In this document: one piece after another, positions 2,130 to 9,424 of the stretch
Layout: each line of letters starts with the position of its first letter
Numbering within the stretch: position 1 is the stretch's first letter
Assembly: GCA_024720975.1 (NCBI GenBank)
Contig: JANJXX010000002.1
Location: 1 to 64,000 of the forward strand
Direction of reading: 5' to 3'
Length of the DNA: 64,000 nt
Origin: Candidatus Panguiarchaeum symbiosum
GTDB taxonomy: Archaea; Asgardarchaeota; Njordarchaeia; Njordarchaeales; Panguiarchaeaceae
Program-made: the position numbers and the translations under genes
The notes under the pieces: generated by a model
Seen by the model: only the letters and a program-made list of their open reading frames with translations
Database searches by the model: none
What the model was told of the DNA's origin: nothing

Positions 2130-3164
2130 CTATACAATGATCATTTGCTGAATTATTTCATGTCTAAGACCTTTGGCTATAGCCTCTGTGAGTATTCTTA
2201 AGTTCTCGTATTCAAATTCGAAGAGTTTGTATATACCAAAGACATAGGGAAATCCTATGGGATTTTTAGGCAGGGCACGCAGAGCTTCTCTTAGTATTAG
2301 ACGCTCACCAAGAGTTCTTGCAAAAAAGTCCATGCCAATCAGATATTGCTCAATTATTTCGCTGTAGACTTGTGGAACTACCTCCACTACTGAACGTCCC
2401 TCCAGGGCATATAGTTCCTTAAGTTTTTTCACAGCTACCCTGTAAGATTTTTCGATGAGCATTTTGTCTAAGTAGTCCACAGCAAAACCATACTTCATTG
2501 GCCCGAGGGCAATTGATATATTCATTAAGTCTATCTCGGTTCCAATAATTGCCCAGATAATAGCCGCATCCTCACCGGGAATTTCTTTCAATTTTTCTAT
2601 AAGCTTTTTGTAATAGGTGCTCCAGAACGAGAGTTCAATTGCATAGAAACTTTTATATTTTTCCCACAAGTTCATTGCTAATTCTAGTGCTTCGCCGAAG
2701 AGGGCTTTCGGCAGAACCTCTAATAATTCTTTCATATTTCCTGCCTTTAGTAGTTGTTCATAGTTAAGCATAGAAAACTTGTACCTGTAACTCTCTGCGG
2801 GCGCGTGAGGGATGCCTCTTATCGTCTCCGAGAGAATCCTAAGCAAGTTTTTGATATCAAATTTAAGTATGTAAGAACGCATGAACTCGTCGTATGGGCG
2901 CGGTAAACCGGACAATATCATCTGTAGTCTTTCCTCAAACACATCAAGAAATAGTCTTAAAAGTGCGTCCTCGCTTATCTCTTTGCCAAGTTGAGTGAGC
3001 TTTTCACCATAATAGGTAGCATACATATAATTAACAAATTCGTCCAGTGATTTAGCCTTGGCAAGATAGTTACTGATGTATGCAGTATCGATTAGGCGTA
3101 CTCTATTTGCATGGCACCTAGCAGTCAAGTAAGCCAAATCTTGTGCAGGCATCATACTTCTCAT
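2130..3164 (-). CDS. atpC: V/A-type ATP synthase subunit C (AC39 family)
   Basis: 344 aa AC39-like; adjacent to subunits D and I. Confidence 0.88.
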   Translation of the reverse strand: MRSMMPAQDLAYLTARCHANRVRLIDTAYISNYLAKAKSLDEFVNYMYATYYGEKLTQLGKEISEDALLRLFLDVFEERLQMILSGLPRPYDEFMRSYILKFDIKNLLRILSETIRGIPHAPAESYRYKFSMLNYEQLLKAGNMKELLEVLPKALFGEALELAMNLWEKYKSFYAIELSFWSTYYKKLIEKLKEIPGEDAAIIWAIIGTEIDLMNISIALGPMKYGFAVDYLDKMLIEKSYRVAVKKLKELYALEGRSVVEVVPQVYSEIIEQYLIGMDFFARTLGERLILREALRALPKNPIGFPYVFGIYKLFEFEYENLRILTEAIAKGLRHEIIQQMIIV

Positions 3165-3778
3165 CCCGAAAAAAGTACTCGGAGAGAAGAGAGTTCAGAA
3201 AGGAGCATCTCAGATAACATCATATTTATGTATTTAATTCTCTCTTCAAGCGATGGAATTGACACCTTCTCGAGGGTATTAACGATTCTATTTGTGATCT
3301 CGATCTCTCGGAGCAAAATTAAAAGCTCCGTTAGACTACTCACGAGTTTGAGTATGTTTGGCAACTCCTCATAGAACTTGCTAGCTATAGCTCTCAAGCC
3401 CTCTGGATACTCTACTGTAGAGGGTATATTAGCAATCCTAAATTCTGGTGCGTAATAACCTCCCTTTGAAATCCATATTACCTCAACTTCAATCCTCTCT
3501 TTAGCGATGGGCTCATATGCCCTTACTGCCTCCTCATACTTTATCAGATTGGCATAGAGAAGCTCCAAAATTTCTAGAATGTTCCTCTTAAGGAAGGATA
3601 TTATATCTACTAGCAGAACAATCGAGCTTTTAAGTGCTTCCCGCAGCGAGTCCCGCTTTTGCTCTAGGATTCTCTTTGCGGAGCGCATCAATCGAAGTTT
3701 CTCTTTAAGTTCAATTAGAGCAAGCTTCGTAGGAGTTACATGCCCTATGCTCATATTATCCCCATAGCTTAGACCCAA
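3161..3778 (-). CDS. atpD: V/A-type ATP synthase subunit D
   Basis: 205 aa; TPTKLALIELKEKLRLMRSAKRILEQKRDSLREAL is the characteristic N terminus. Confidence 0.93.
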   Translation of the reverse strand: MGLSYGDNMSIGHVTPTKLALIELKEKLRLMRSAKRILEQKRDSLREALKSSIVLLVDIISFLKRNILEILELLYANLIKYEEAVRAYEPIAKERIEVEVIWISKGGYYAPEFRIANIPSTVEYPEGLRAIASKFYEELPNILKLVSSLTELLILLREIEITNRIVNTLEKVSIPSLEERIKYINMMLSEMLLSELSSLRVLFSG

Positions 3779-4022
3779 AAATTATTTTTCCCAGTAAGAT
3801 TGGCAAAACAGTTGCTACAAAAATACCAGCTAGAATTACCAAAGCGAGCGCCAATAAATGTACTTCCAAGCGCAATACATTGATATAAGCTCGTATTATT
3901 AACAAGACGGTTATTTGCACGAATATTAAAAGGGAGAAATATACTACTGCCCTCCTTAAATTTTTCCTCCTTAGTTCTTCTTTTGAAATATCTCCCTGGT
4001 TTAACATACACTGACACTTCAT
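3756..4022 (-). CDS. Small two-helix membrane protein within the ATPase gene cluster
   Basis: 88 aa, two hydrophobic segments (VYFSLLIFVQITVLLIIRAYI; VHLLALALVILAGIFVATVLPILLG); packed between atpI and atpD, overlapping atpD by 23 nt. Confidence 0.75.
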   Translation of the reverse strand: MKCQCMLNQGDISKEELRRKNLRRAVVYFSLLIFVQITVLLIIRAYINVLRLEVHLLALALVILAGIFVATVLPILLGKIIFGSKLWG

Positions 4023-4023
4023 T

Positions 4024-6024
4024 TTATCCTAACGCGAATGGTTTGAAATATCTTCCTCCTCCTAAGTACCACTTCGTAGAGAATTCATATAAGAGAAGCC
4101 TTAAAGCTTGTAAGCTTACTACAATCGTTTCTAGTATTATTATCAGTAAGTTAAGAAAGGCTAACCCAGCCACATAAGTAAGCGTCCCCATTACCTTAAA
4201 TTTGCTTGCTATGATACTGAATGCCGCATGGCCTATGAGGAAGCCAGCTAATCGAGAGAATGAAAGCGTATTTGATATCATACCAATTGGCATTTCTATG
4301 AGCTTGGATGCATATTCTCCTAGATTTCTCTCAATAATGCCGCTGATGATAAGGAGCCCAACACCACTCAGTATCATGTATACTGGCCAGCTCTTTGACG
4401 GGTCTAGGATGTTTAGCACTTCCATACCGTACTTTTCGAATACTAGCTCTATTCTGACGTTTATTATGGGTACAGTAACTGGAGGCAACAGAGTTATGCC
4501 TAAGAAGTGGAAACCAAGTGAGATCAAACCTATGTACATCAGCATTCCAGGCAGTGCCCATTCACCCAGGATTCCTTCAATGTAGTGACCATGCTTGATG
4601 TTCTTGTACATAAATAAGAGCATTGCTAGGATTATTTCTGCAATCCCAATAAACAGAGCTATTTTGATAACCCATTTGATGCTTGCCATATCTTCTACCC
4701 AGTGTTCCTTCAAGAAGGGCAACAACGGAGGGTATAGTCCAATCAAGAAGCATTCACCGAATAGTATGCCGAATAATGTTGCAGAAAATCCTGCTAGCAT
4801 GAGAATTGCCCCTGCCTTTTTCCCAGAGAACCCCAAGAGCTTTTCTATACCAACTCGAATTTTCTTGACGCCAGCAAACATGGCACCTAATGCAAACAGA
4901 ACCGCTCCCTGCCCTATGTCCGGAAACATGTAACCAAACATGAGAGCCCATAAGATGCTCACTAAAATCCAAGGGAATATATCGCCCTCTCCAGGATAGC
5001 CCATCTGCGCTAGAATCGATGCTAAAGGAGATAATGAACCTCGTATCTTTACGTAGGAAGGCGGAGCTTCACCTTTTAAGGGTTTTTCTCTTCTTATCAG
5101 TATACTAGGACTCAGATTCTTAAGTAGACGCTCAAACTCTTCAAAGTACTCTTCAGGAATCCAGCATAGAGCGACTCCAATATACTCCCCTTTAGCAGTC
5201 ATTGTCTTCGCTGTGAGTATTTTGCGCGATATATTGGCTTTGTACCAAAGTTTCACTAAACTTAGGGCTCGCTCTTGAAAAGATACTTCAAACTCTGCAG
5301 TGAGCTTCTTTATACTGCTCTCTATGTCATAGATAGTGTTCTCTAGGTCCTTTATGTTTCTTGGAATTTCGTCTATATCTAGACTTAATTCGTTGACGCC
5401 AGGAACTTTTAGAACCGCTAGTGCAGCGTTTAGAATATCTCTTGAGGGTGCTGAAACAAATGCAATTACATCACCCGCGAGGCCTACGTTTCTACGTAGA
5501 TCCTTGGGTATTTCCATAGTCTCGAAGTCCAGATTCATCGCTGAAAGATTTTCAAGAACAAAATCTCGCAGTTCAGCATGAAGAGTTACAATGGCTGAAA
5601 ATTCCCTGCTAAGAATTTCCAACACTTTCTGTGAATTTCTGGCTAGGCCATATATTAACCTTAATTTTGATAGCTTTTCTTTTAATTTTTCTACGTGAGT
5701 TGAGATTTCAAAGAATTCCTCTAAGTTCTTTAATTCCTGCTGGATTTCACCCAAGTCATATAATTTTACAGGAACAACACCTGCTACCTTATTGACATGC
5801 TCCTTTATATCGACATTATTTTTTTGAGCTAGTTTTTCTAAGAGCCCTATAAGTAAATGAAAACTATGTAGTTCTGTTGGTACCTCTTTTTTAAAACCTA
5901 CAAATTTGTCCTCCGGGACACTGATAAGCTCCGCCTTACCGAATTTGCCTATCAGCAGTATTATGTCGTCTTCAAGCCTTTTAGGATATATTATTGCGAC
6001 CTTATACATAACTCCTGTCACCAA
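4024..6024 (-). CDS. atpI: V/A-type ATP synthase subunit I (a subunit)
   Basis: 666 aa; long soluble N-terminal half followed by multi-TM C-terminal half (LMFGYMFPDIGQGAVLF, RLAGFLIGHAAF). Confidence 0.94.
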   Translation of the reverse strand: MVTGVMYKVAIIYPKRLEDDIILLIGKFGKAELISVPEDKFVGFKKEVPTELHSFHLLIGLLEKLAQKNNVDIKEHVNKVAGVVPVKLYDLGEIQQELKNLEEFFEISTHVEKLKEKLSKLRLIYGLARNSQKVLEILSREFSAIVTLHAELRDFVLENLSAMNLDFETMEIPKDLRRNVGLAGDVIAFVSAPSRDILNAALAVLKVPGVNELSLDIDEIPRNIKDLENTIYDIESSIKKLTAEFEVSFQERALSLVKLWYKANISRKILTAKTMTAKGEYIGVALCWIPEEYFEEFERLLKNLSPSILIRREKPLKGEAPPSYVKIRGSLSPLASILAQMGYPGEGDIFPWILVSILWALMFGYMFPDIGQGAVLFALGAMFAGVKKIRVGIEKLLGFSGKKAGAILMLAGFSATLFGILFGECFLIGLYPPLLPFLKEHWVEDMASIKWVIKIALFIGIAEIILAMLLFMYKNIKHGHYIEGILGEWALPGMLMYIGLISLGFHFLGITLLPPVTVPIINVRIELVFEKYGMEVLNILDPSKSWPVYMILSGVGLLIISGIIERNLGEYASKLIEMPIGMISNTLSFSRLAGFLIGHAAFSIIASKFKVMGTLTYVAGLAFLNLLIIILETIVVSLQALRLLLYEFSTKWYLGGGRYFKPFALG

Positions 6025-6091: not shown

Positions 6092-6409
6092 ATGCGAACA
6101 CTAGCTGCCATGAGAATAGCATTGGCGCTACTTTCTGTTTGTGTATTAATGCTTATCGCTACCGGTAGTGTCCTCGCACAAGAGCAAGGAACAACGCAGA
6201 GTCAACAAGAGCTGAGAGCTATAGCATCTGCATTAAGCATAGGAATAAGTTGTATAGGAGCAAGCTATGCAGTTGCAAAGACTGGTACAGCTGCTATAGG
6301 CGCCGTTATTGAGCGCCCTGAGGTTTTTGGTAAGGCAATAATTTTCGTCGGTCTTGCTGAAGGTATCGCTATATATGGTTTACTAATAGCGATTCTCCTA
6401 GTTCCGTAG
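6092..6409 (+). CDS. atpK: V/A-type ATP synthase proteolipid subunit K (c)
   Basis: 105 aa; leader-like N terminus then two glycine-rich TM helices, ion-binding-type GLAEGIAIYG; GGTGA 6 nt before the ATG. Confidence 0.9.
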   Translation: MRTLAAMRIALALLSVCVLMLIATGSVLAQEQGTTQSQQELRAIASALSIGISCIGASYAVAKTGTAAIGAVIERPEVFGKAIIFVGLAEGIAIYGLLIAILLVP

Positions 6410-8087: not shown

Positions 8088-9110
8088 TCATTCAAAAATT
8101 TTGCTCCCAACTTGACGATCAATATTGAAGAGCTCTTTTCTAGTTAACAGTGCAATGTCATGCTCGTGCAAAAGCTCTTTAACTTCCTCATCTGAGCCGC
8201 TAAAAGCTATGAATATCTTTTGATATTCTTTGCCTGCGAGCTTGCTGCTGACAACATTTATGAATTCCTCAATTTTTCTTGATGTGGCTTTACCTATCGT
8301 GGCATATATCGCCGTTTCAATGTTATCAGCTTCACAGATCAGATCTATTCTACCTGATTCTGTAGTGAGGCTATAAATGTTTTTGCAGGGATGGAGAAGT
8401 ACTTTTTTTCCGTTAGAGGCTTCTATTTCTATATTGTCGCTGATTTTTGAAAACATAGTATAGAGCAACCTCACGAATCTGTTTTGGGATATTAAGCCTA
8501 ACCTCCTCACAATCCTCTTGATATTGCGAGAGATTACACGCTTCACTAAAGTGTCAAGTACTGCGTTGAATACTTTATCTCCGCTCTTATTTCTCACAAT
8601 GATGCCGCCAATTACATTTATCTTTTCCCCTAACTCTAGATTTACATCTATGCCTATCTCCTCTCTGATTTTTCGTCTAATGTCATCATTCCTAGACTTT
8701 ATAAATTCAAGATCTCTGGTATTTGCGCTGACTACTATCTCATTTTCGCCTAGTTCTAGGACGGCTTCTCTTACAAGTTTGTATAGAAATCCATAGTAGT
8801 CTACATCCTTGGTACGTTCCTGGATTTTTTCCTCGATTAGCTTCAGGATTTTGCCCTGTAAATTATTGAGGATTTTATCCTTGAGCACAGCTTTTTCTCC
8901 TTTAATTCTGCGTATTTCTGTATCCAAGATTCTACGCCGTTCCATGTCAATAACTTCCCTTGCACGTCTTTCTGCTTCAGCTCTAGCTTTTTCCTCTGCA
9001 GCTTTGATAATACCATCTGCCTCTTTATGGGCTTTTTCTAGAATTTCTCGAGCTTCTTCCTCGACTTTTCCCAGTATGTCGCGTATAAAGAGTTCGAGCT
9101 CGTCACTCAT
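8088..9110 (-). CDS. atpE: V/A-type ATP synthase subunit E with an extra C-terminal domain
   Basis: 340 aa; first ~200 aa match a subunit E pattern (coiled coil AEEKARAEAERRAREVIDMERRRIL...; INVIGGIIVRNKSGDKVFNAVLDTLVKR); ~140 additional aa. Confidence 0.87.
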   Translation of the reverse strand: MSDELELFIRDILGKVEEEAREILEKAHKEADGIIKAAEEKARAEAERRAREVIDMERRRILDTEIRRIKGEKAVLKDKILNNLQGKILKLIEEKIQERTKDVDYYGFLYKLVREAVLELGENEIVVSANTRDLEFIKSRNDDIRRKIREEIGIDVNLELGEKINVIGGIIVRNKSGDKVFNAVLDTLVKRVISRNIKRIVRRLGLISQNRFVRLLYTMFSKISDNIEIEASNGKKVLLHPCKNIYSLTTESGRIDLICEADNIETAIYATIGKATSRKIEEFINVVSSKLAGKEYQKIFIAFSGSDEEVKELLHEHDIALLTRKELFNIDRQVGSKIFE

Positions 9111-9424
9111 TTGAAGATCGCCTTAATAAGCATTTCTGCAATTTCATTTAATTCTTCATCTGAGATTGACATTAGACGCTCAAACTCTTCATCAAGTTTC
9201 AGCTCAAGTTTACTAACTTCGCTGGCCAATTCTTGGCGGTACTTTTCTATGAGAGACTCCGTTAACTTTTTAATATAGTCCTCACTTAAGATTTCCTTCT
9301 CCATAGTTCTGGCATTATTTATGATTTTTTGAGCCTCTGCTTTAGCTTTTTCGATTATCTCTCCTGCTTTTTTCTCTGCCATAGCTAGACGCATTGCTAA
9401 TGCTATGCTCATTGTAACCCCCAA
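9107..9424 (-). CDS. atpH: V/A-type ATP synthase peripheral stalk subunit H/G
   Basis: 105 aa coiled coil (EKKAGEIIEKAKAEAQKIINNAR) immediately upstream of atpE, as in archaeal ATPase operons. Confidence 0.78.
   Translation of the reverse strand: MGVTMSIALAMRLAMAEKKAGEIIEKAKAEAQKIINNARTMEKEILSEDYIKKLTESLIEKYRQELASEVSKLELKLDEEFERLMSISDEELNEIAEMLIKAIFK

What the first reader, a model, noticed from the sequence alone, without database searches (positions are those of the whole stretch)
8088..9110. V-ATPase subunit E fused to an extra ~140-aa C-terminal domain
Seen: the subunit E part ends around VLDTLVKRVISRNIKRIV; it is followed by LYTMFSKISDNIEIEASNGKKVLLHPCKNIYSLTTESGRIDLICEADNIETAIYATIGKATSRKIEEFINVVSSKLAGKEYQKIFIAFSGSDEEVKELLHEHDIALLTR. 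Known: archaeal subunit E is usually about 200 aa. Inference: the tail follows the beta-alpha order of PD-(D/E)XK-like domains (GRIDLICE...; IFIAFSGSDEEVKELLHEHDIALL), but the usual ExK position reads TIGK, so it would be catalytically dead and perhaps structural or regulatory on the peripheral stalk.
Basis: partly seen in the sequence, partly recalled or inferred. Interest (0 to 1): 0.6.

Follow-up and report, generated by a model that had tools for sequence, protein, structure and literature searches.

The report
ATP-synthase stalk subunit with dead nuclease domain
In one genus of Asgard archaea (Njordarchaeales), the stalk subunit E of the ATP-making rotary motor carries an extra domain captured from a nuclease-bearing ATPase family that has lost its cutting residues, which suggests that a worn-out nuclease fold was reused as a building or docking block on a core energy machine.

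Summary
The 340-aa ORF at 8088-9110 (-) is A-type ATPase subunit E (residues 1-203) followed in frame by a 137-aa domain. It is not an assembly error: a second genome of the same genus, Candidatus Njordarchaeota B13_G17, has the same fusion in the same gene order, and in both it is the only E gene found. Among 155 genomes of the phylum with an E match, no other listed E open frame exceeds 300 aa. Between the two species the tail is at least as conserved (62% identity) as the E core (54%). AlphaFold models the tail confidently (pLDDT 89.7, pTM 0.86); its best PDB matches are PD-(D/E)XK proteins (AF1548, NucS/EndoMS, Cdn1/Can2). It is homologous (hhalign E 1.3e-11) to the C-terminal domain of an ATPase_2 subfamily of related genomes. 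Of four acidic residues invariant there, both tails have lost three, including the Glu of E-x-K; one Asp remains. The most likely role is a cap or docking module, two copies per enzyme, on top of the A1 head; that role is inferred, not shown. It is a genus-restricted new variant of subunit E, of moderate interest.

The parts
8088..9110 (-). Whole fused gene: A-type ATPase subunit E plus C-terminal domain, 340 aa (stop codon 8088-8090)
   Evidence: PF01991 at residues 12-204
8502..9110 (-). Subunit E part, residues 1-203: N-terminal coiled coil (about 1-100) and alpha/beta globular part
8091..8501 (-). Added domain, residues 204-340: degenerate PD-(D/E)XK fold, helix-5 strands-helix-strand-helix-strand-helix
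   Evidence: homology; model; Foldseek
8343..8345 (-). Codon of Asp256, the retained motif Asp (GRIDL) on the second core strand
   Evidence: alignment; residue numbers
8295..8303 (-). Codons of Ala270-Thr271-Ile272, which stand where relatives have E-x-K (or E-x-H/Y)
   Evidence: alignment; residue numbers
9107..9424 (-). Upstream gene overlapping E by 4 bases: 105-aa coiled-coil protein, probable H/G partner of E on the peripheral stalk
   Evidence: weak sub-cut-off matches to V-ATPase_G_2 (0.0019) and V-ATPase_G (0.007); position next to E in both genomes

Best explanation
In this Njordarchaeales genus the only subunit E gene found has captured, in frame at its 3' end, the C-terminal PD-(D/E)XK-type domain of an ATPase_2 protein family. 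The domain then lost most of its catalytic acids but kept its fold. The protein still works as subunit E: the coiled coil pairs with the H/G subunit and the globular part attaches to the top of the A1 head. The extra domain, joined by only about five residues and so probably fixed rather than dangling, sits beside that attachment point, two copies per enzyme, and acts as a cap that stiffens the stalk-head joint or as a docking surface for another protein. Shown here: the fusion, its recurrence, the homology, the predicted fold, the residue losses and the conservation. Inferred: the position on the enzyme, the copy number and the role.
For: Same intact fusion and gene order in two genomes of one genus, single E match in each. 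Homology of the tail to ATPase_2 C-terminal domains (hhalign 97.4%, E 1.3e-11; HMM about 2e-12). Confident PD-(D/E)XK-like model and Foldseek matches. Three of four acids invariant in the ATPase subgroup are lost in both tails. Tail conserved at least as well as the E core: 62% against 54% identity, changes mostly at third codon positions. [quoted passage not shown] The order is described as hyperthermophilic (PMC10307638), which would suit a stiffening role.
Against: No model of the whole complex; the full-length single-sequence model is too weak around the junction (pLDDT 30-50) to place the tail. Only two species carry the fusion, and its absence in sister families shows that the enzyme does not need it. 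No interaction partner is known. Foldseek E-values are modest (1.5e-3 at best).
Confidence: 0.6

Rival explanations
1. Tolerated accretion: the domain was joined by a recombination accident, does no harm and has no function beyond folding stably.
For: Confined to one genus; catalytic residues lost; no known role for such a domain on an ATP synthase.
Against: The tail is at least as conserved as the E core (62% against 54% identity; third-position bias; dN 0.315 against 0.334, dS saturated), the frame is intact in both species, and the linker and several strand motifs (GLISQNRF, HPCKNIY, GRIDL, FIAFSGSD) are identical.
Confidence: 0.17
2. Pseudo-nuclease that still binds a nucleic acid or nucleotide in the former active-site cleft and so tethers or senses it at the ATP synthase.
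For: PD-(D/E)XK fold kept; Asp256, Lys279 and the strands around the former active site are conserved between the two tails.
Against: The tail is slightly acidic (18 K/R, 20 D/E, pI 6.0); no recognisable ligand motif.
Confidence: 0.12
3. The domain is still an active nuclease with a migrated active site (Asp256 with helix-B Lys279 and Glu281/Glu282).
For: Asp256, Lys279, Glu281 and Glu282 are the same in both species; migrated catalytic residues are known in this superfamily (general knowledge); Lys279 corresponds to a Lys invariant in the ATPase subgroup.
Against: Strand-3 Glu is Ala in both, no strand-3 Lys, both helix-A Glu lost; an exposed nuclease on an ATP synthase has no evident use.
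Confidence: 0.06
4. The tail is made or released as a separate protein (internal start or cleavage).
For: In-frame GTG/TTG/ATG codons lie near the junction in the window.
Against: Of these only one TTG inside the first helix (codon 215) is at the same place in both species, and no ribosome-binding site is evident before it (sequence shown); the frame runs through the junction in both.
Confidence: 0.05

Closest known systems
A/V-ATPase subunit E (PF01991; Pyrococcus horikoshii E, PDB 2dm9 and 4dt0)
   Same: Residues 1-203: profile match, coiled coil plus globular part, neighbouring H/G-like gene, single copy
   Different: 137 extra C-terminal residues that form a second folded domain, absent from the E proteins of sister families
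C-terminal domain of archaeal ATPase_2 proteins (PF01637 N-terminal; DUF234/Mrr-like C-terminal)
   Same: Homologous over 135 columns, 25% identity; same motif Asp and helix-B Lys
   Different: No ATPase or winged-helix-like part; strand-3 Glu replaced by Ala and both helix-A Glu lost
PD-(D/E)XK nucleases: AF1548 (1y88), NucS/EndoMS (2vld, 5gke), Cdn1 (8z4i), Can2 (8q3y)
   Same: Predicted fold (Foldseek probability 0.92-1.00)
   Different: Catalytic residues missing except the Asp; sequence identity only 10-14%
RPB5 N-terminal domain of RNA polymerase (general knowledge: restriction-endonuclease-like fold used as a structural part)
   Same: Inert nuclease-like fold built into a large multi-subunit machine; viral RPB5 appears among weak matches
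   Different: Different complex and no shown common descent; works-like analogy only
TLDc proteins (mEAK-7, Oxr1) bound to eukaryotic V-ATPase (PMC9263379)
   Same: An extra domain placed against the stalk and the A/B subunits, with a possible regulatory effect
   Different: Separate proteins of unrelated fold that contact other parts of E; analogy of mode only

Membership tests
A/V-ATPase subunit E (PF01991) | Profile match above the curated cut-off over the whole model | tested here: met
   62.3 bits against a cut-off of 24.2, model positions 2-198 of 199
A/V-ATPase subunit E (PF01991) | N-terminal coiled coil and C-terminal alpha/beta globular part like solved E structures | tested here: met
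   Foldseek to V-ATPase E chains and 2dm9/4dt0, phmmer to 4dt0 and 2dm9; the model itself is of low confidence
A/V-ATPase subunit E (PF01991) | Genome encodes the other A-ATPase subunits and no other E | tested here: met
   C, D, I, K and H/G-like in the window, A and B on the same contig, one E match; the genome is about 81% complete
A/V-ATPase subunit E (PF01991) | Incorporation into the peripheral stalk | not testable with these tools
   Needs a purified complex or a complex model
PD-(D/E)XK superfamily (fold) | Core alpha-beta-beta-beta-alpha-beta fold | tested here: met
   Model pLDDT 89.7; Foldseek matches to AF1548, NucS, Cdn1, Can2; E-values 1.5e-3 and weaker
PD-(D/E)XK superfamily (active nuclease) | Asp on strand 2 and E-x-K on strand 3, helix-A Glu | tested here: not met
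   Asp256 kept; E-x-K position is A-T-I; helix-A positions are V/R and T/K
ATPase_2 C-terminal domain subfamily (alignment A2) | Statistically supported homology over the whole domain | tested here: met
   hhalign 97.4%, E 1.3e-11, 135 columns; HMM E 2.8e-12 and 1.7e-12
ATPase_2 C-terminal domain subfamily (alignment A2) | N-terminal ATPase (PF01637) in the same protein | tested here: not met
   The tail is joined to subunit E instead
DUF234 (PF03008) / Mrr_cat (PF04471) | Direct profile match of the tail | tested here: not met
   No such match of the tail; only sub-cut-off matches of some ATPase relatives: DUF234 0.024, Mrr_cat 6.7e-5

The most novel reading that the evidence does not exclude
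The captured domain is a regulatory interface of the archaeal ATP synthase: two inert nuclease folds on top of each A1 head form a docking platform, perhaps pairing between enzymes or with the same domain of the related ATPase_2 proteins, so that an ATPase family with nuclease-like domains is coupled to ATP synthesis.
Probability: 0.08. Interest if true: 0.8.

Novelty: new variant of a known kind. Interest (0 to 1): 0.42.

Why it matters
A-type ATP synthase subunits are conservative (in this phylum scan E is mostly 200-275 aa). A lineage of Asgard archaea that has added a second folded domain to its only stalk subunit E gives a natural test of whether the joint between stalk and A1 head can carry stabilising or regulatory modules. 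It also records how a nuclease fold can lose its active site: E-x-K in wider relatives, E-x-H/Y in the nearest ATPase subgroup, A-x-I/L in the fusion. I found no earlier description in the papers searched, which cover open-licence papers only.

Tried and rejected
Assembly error: rejected, same fusion in a second MAG. Chance read-through tail: rejected by homology, confident fold and conservation. A second, ordinary E gene: none found in either genome (both about 80% complete). Identity by direct Pfam or NCBIfam match of the tail: nothing above cut-off, only SMEK_N at 0.0077 below cut-off. PDB by sequence with the ATPase-domain profile: nothing convincing. Relatives in viral contigs: none confirmed. 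Close relatives of the tail in GTDB r220 contigs: only B13_G17, but that scan uses short exact patterns and would miss distant ones. PADLOC: no match of the tail, weak ATPase-part matches of relatives. Full-length structure from one sequence: too weak to place the tail. dS is saturated, so no proper dN/dS ratio. ATPase loci fetched by the genome search were not sent to the structure tool, because its stated rule names other sources; the tail model therefore rests on two sequences. A literature search for inert nuclease folds with RPB5 gave nothing. Fusions of E outside this phylum were not surveyed.

Full report
What is there. The finding is an ORF on the minus strand, 8088-9110, 340 residues, ATG start. 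Its first 203 residues are an A-type ATPase subunit E by Pfam (5.6e-17, residues 12-204), by NCBIfam (2.6e-23, below that model's strict cut-off), by sequence to the solved E structures 4dt0 and 2dm9 and by Foldseek. The gene upstream (9107-9424) encodes a 105-aa H/G-like partner and overlaps it by four bases; downstream lie ribosomal protein genes (uS14, uS8, uL6 by inspection). Subunits C, D and I lie at 2130-6024 and K on the other strand at 6092-6409. The catalytic A and B subunits are elsewhere on the same contig.

Is the tail real and unusual? Aligned with E proteins of the same order, the ordinary protein ends at about our residue 204 or soon after. The remaining 137 residues have no counterpart there. 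A scan of 228 genomes of the phylum for PF01991 found a match in 155; the window genome and its one genus mate have open frames of 344 and 348 aa, and the others listed are mostly 200-275 (the two largest, 300 and 274 aa, were not examined, and the weakest matches were not listed). The genus mate is Candidatus Njordarchaeota B13_G17, so the window comes from the same genus of Njordarchaeales, within the Asgard archaea. Its fusion is intact and has the same neighbours. Each genome has a single E match, though both are only about 80% complete. Between the two species the tail is 62% identical and the E core 54%; differences fall mostly at third codon positions in both parts; dN is 0.315 and 0.334, dS saturated. 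The tail is therefore constrained about as much as the rest of the protein.

Where the tail comes from. The tail alone, searched in 99 relatives, matched the C-terminal part of 465-502-aa ATPases at 1e-6 to 1e-4. Those tested carry PF01637 (ATPase_2), and one matches Mrr_cat, below its cut-off, in its C-terminal domain. Profile against profile the two are homologous over 135 columns (97.4%, 1.3e-11), and an HMM of the ATPase domains finds both tails at about 2e-12. In the 59 nearest genomes this domain was found in Njordarchaeales and one other lineage only, so a local source is likely. In a tree the two tails form one well supported, long-branched group (100/100), which fits one fusion followed by rapid change; their nearest ATPase relative is not resolved.

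Fold and active site. A model of the tail from two sequences is confident (mean pLDDT 89.7, pTM 0.86), with the order helix, five strands, helix, strand, helix, strand, helix. The best PDB matches are AF1548, Cdn1, NucS/EndoMS, VC1899 and Can2, which I recognise as PD-(D/E)XK proteins; E-values are modest (1.5e-3 to about 4e-2), with metallo-beta-lactamases and others mixed in lower down at lower probability. Viral-library matches include restriction endonucleases. In the ATPase subgroup two helix-A Glu, the second-strand Asp and the third-strand Glu are invariant. Wider ATPase_2 relatives keep E-x-K on strand 3; the nearest subgroup has E-x-H or E-x-Y; the tails have A-T-I and A-T-L, with V/R and T/K in place of the helix-A Glu. 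Asp256 and a helix-B Lys (279) remain. The domain is predicted to be inactive. A migrated active site using helix-B residues cannot be excluded from sequence.

How it probably works. [quoted passage not shown]). A domain that follows directly after the last E helix would sit beside that attachment, two copies per enzyme. The link is short, about five residues between predicted helices, so a fixed cap is more likely than a free tether, but the full-length model does not resolve the junction. The order is described as hyperthermophilic (PMC10307638), which fits a stiffening role without testing it. The tail is slightly acidic, which argues mildly against nucleic-acid binding. I commit to a structural or docking module as most likely (0.6), with tolerated accretion (0.17), ligand-binding pseudo-nuclease (0.12), migrated-site nuclease (0.06) and separate product (0.05) as rivals.

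Compared with what is known. As subunit E it is a member with an added domain. As a PD-(D/E)XK domain it belongs by fold and homology but fails the catalytic-residue test, so it should not be called a nuclease. The nearest precedent in mode is an inert restriction-endonuclease-like fold used as a structural part, as in RPB5 (general knowledge; viral RPB5 appears among weak matches). TLDc proteins on eukaryotic V-ATPase offer a loose analogy for added domains at the stalks (PMC9263379). A survey of archaeal fusions shows no such E fusion in the passages found (PMC11237513). I found no earlier description, within open-licence papers only.

Verdict. It is a new variant of a known subunit, of moderate interest, because its function is inferred and only two species are known to carry it.

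Noticed in passing
window 3756-4022 (-): An 88-aa, probably two-helix membrane protein lies between the D and I subunit genes of the A-ATPase cluster; no Pfam match above cut-off (best MgtE 0.011).
   Followed up: no
window 6092-6409 (+): The proteolipid K subunit (PF00137) is on the opposite strand to the C, D, I, H/G and E genes, and A and B are about 110-160 kb away on the contig: the A-ATPase genes are scattered.
   Followed up: partly
L029-L035, C-terminal domains: A subgroup of ATPase_2 proteins in Njordarchaeales and one other lineage has E-[VI]-[HY]-F in place of E-x-K, with an invariant helix-B Lys, so it may itself be inactive or have a migrated active site.
   Followed up: partly
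G184:C207 and G220:C1: Two other E matches in the phylum lie in longer open frames (300 and 274 aa); whether these are other extensions or only upstream open frame was not examined.
   Followed up: no
G001: L064, L065, L067: The genus mate has three full ATP-synt_ab matches against two in the window genome: an extra A/B-type gene or contamination of the MAG.
   Followed up: no
L005 1-332 and 1967-2947; L004 600-1043: Genes beside the ATPase_2 relatives look like further DUF234-type ATPase parts and a PIN-domain toxin (by eye), a setting typical of mobile or conflict genes.
   Followed up: no
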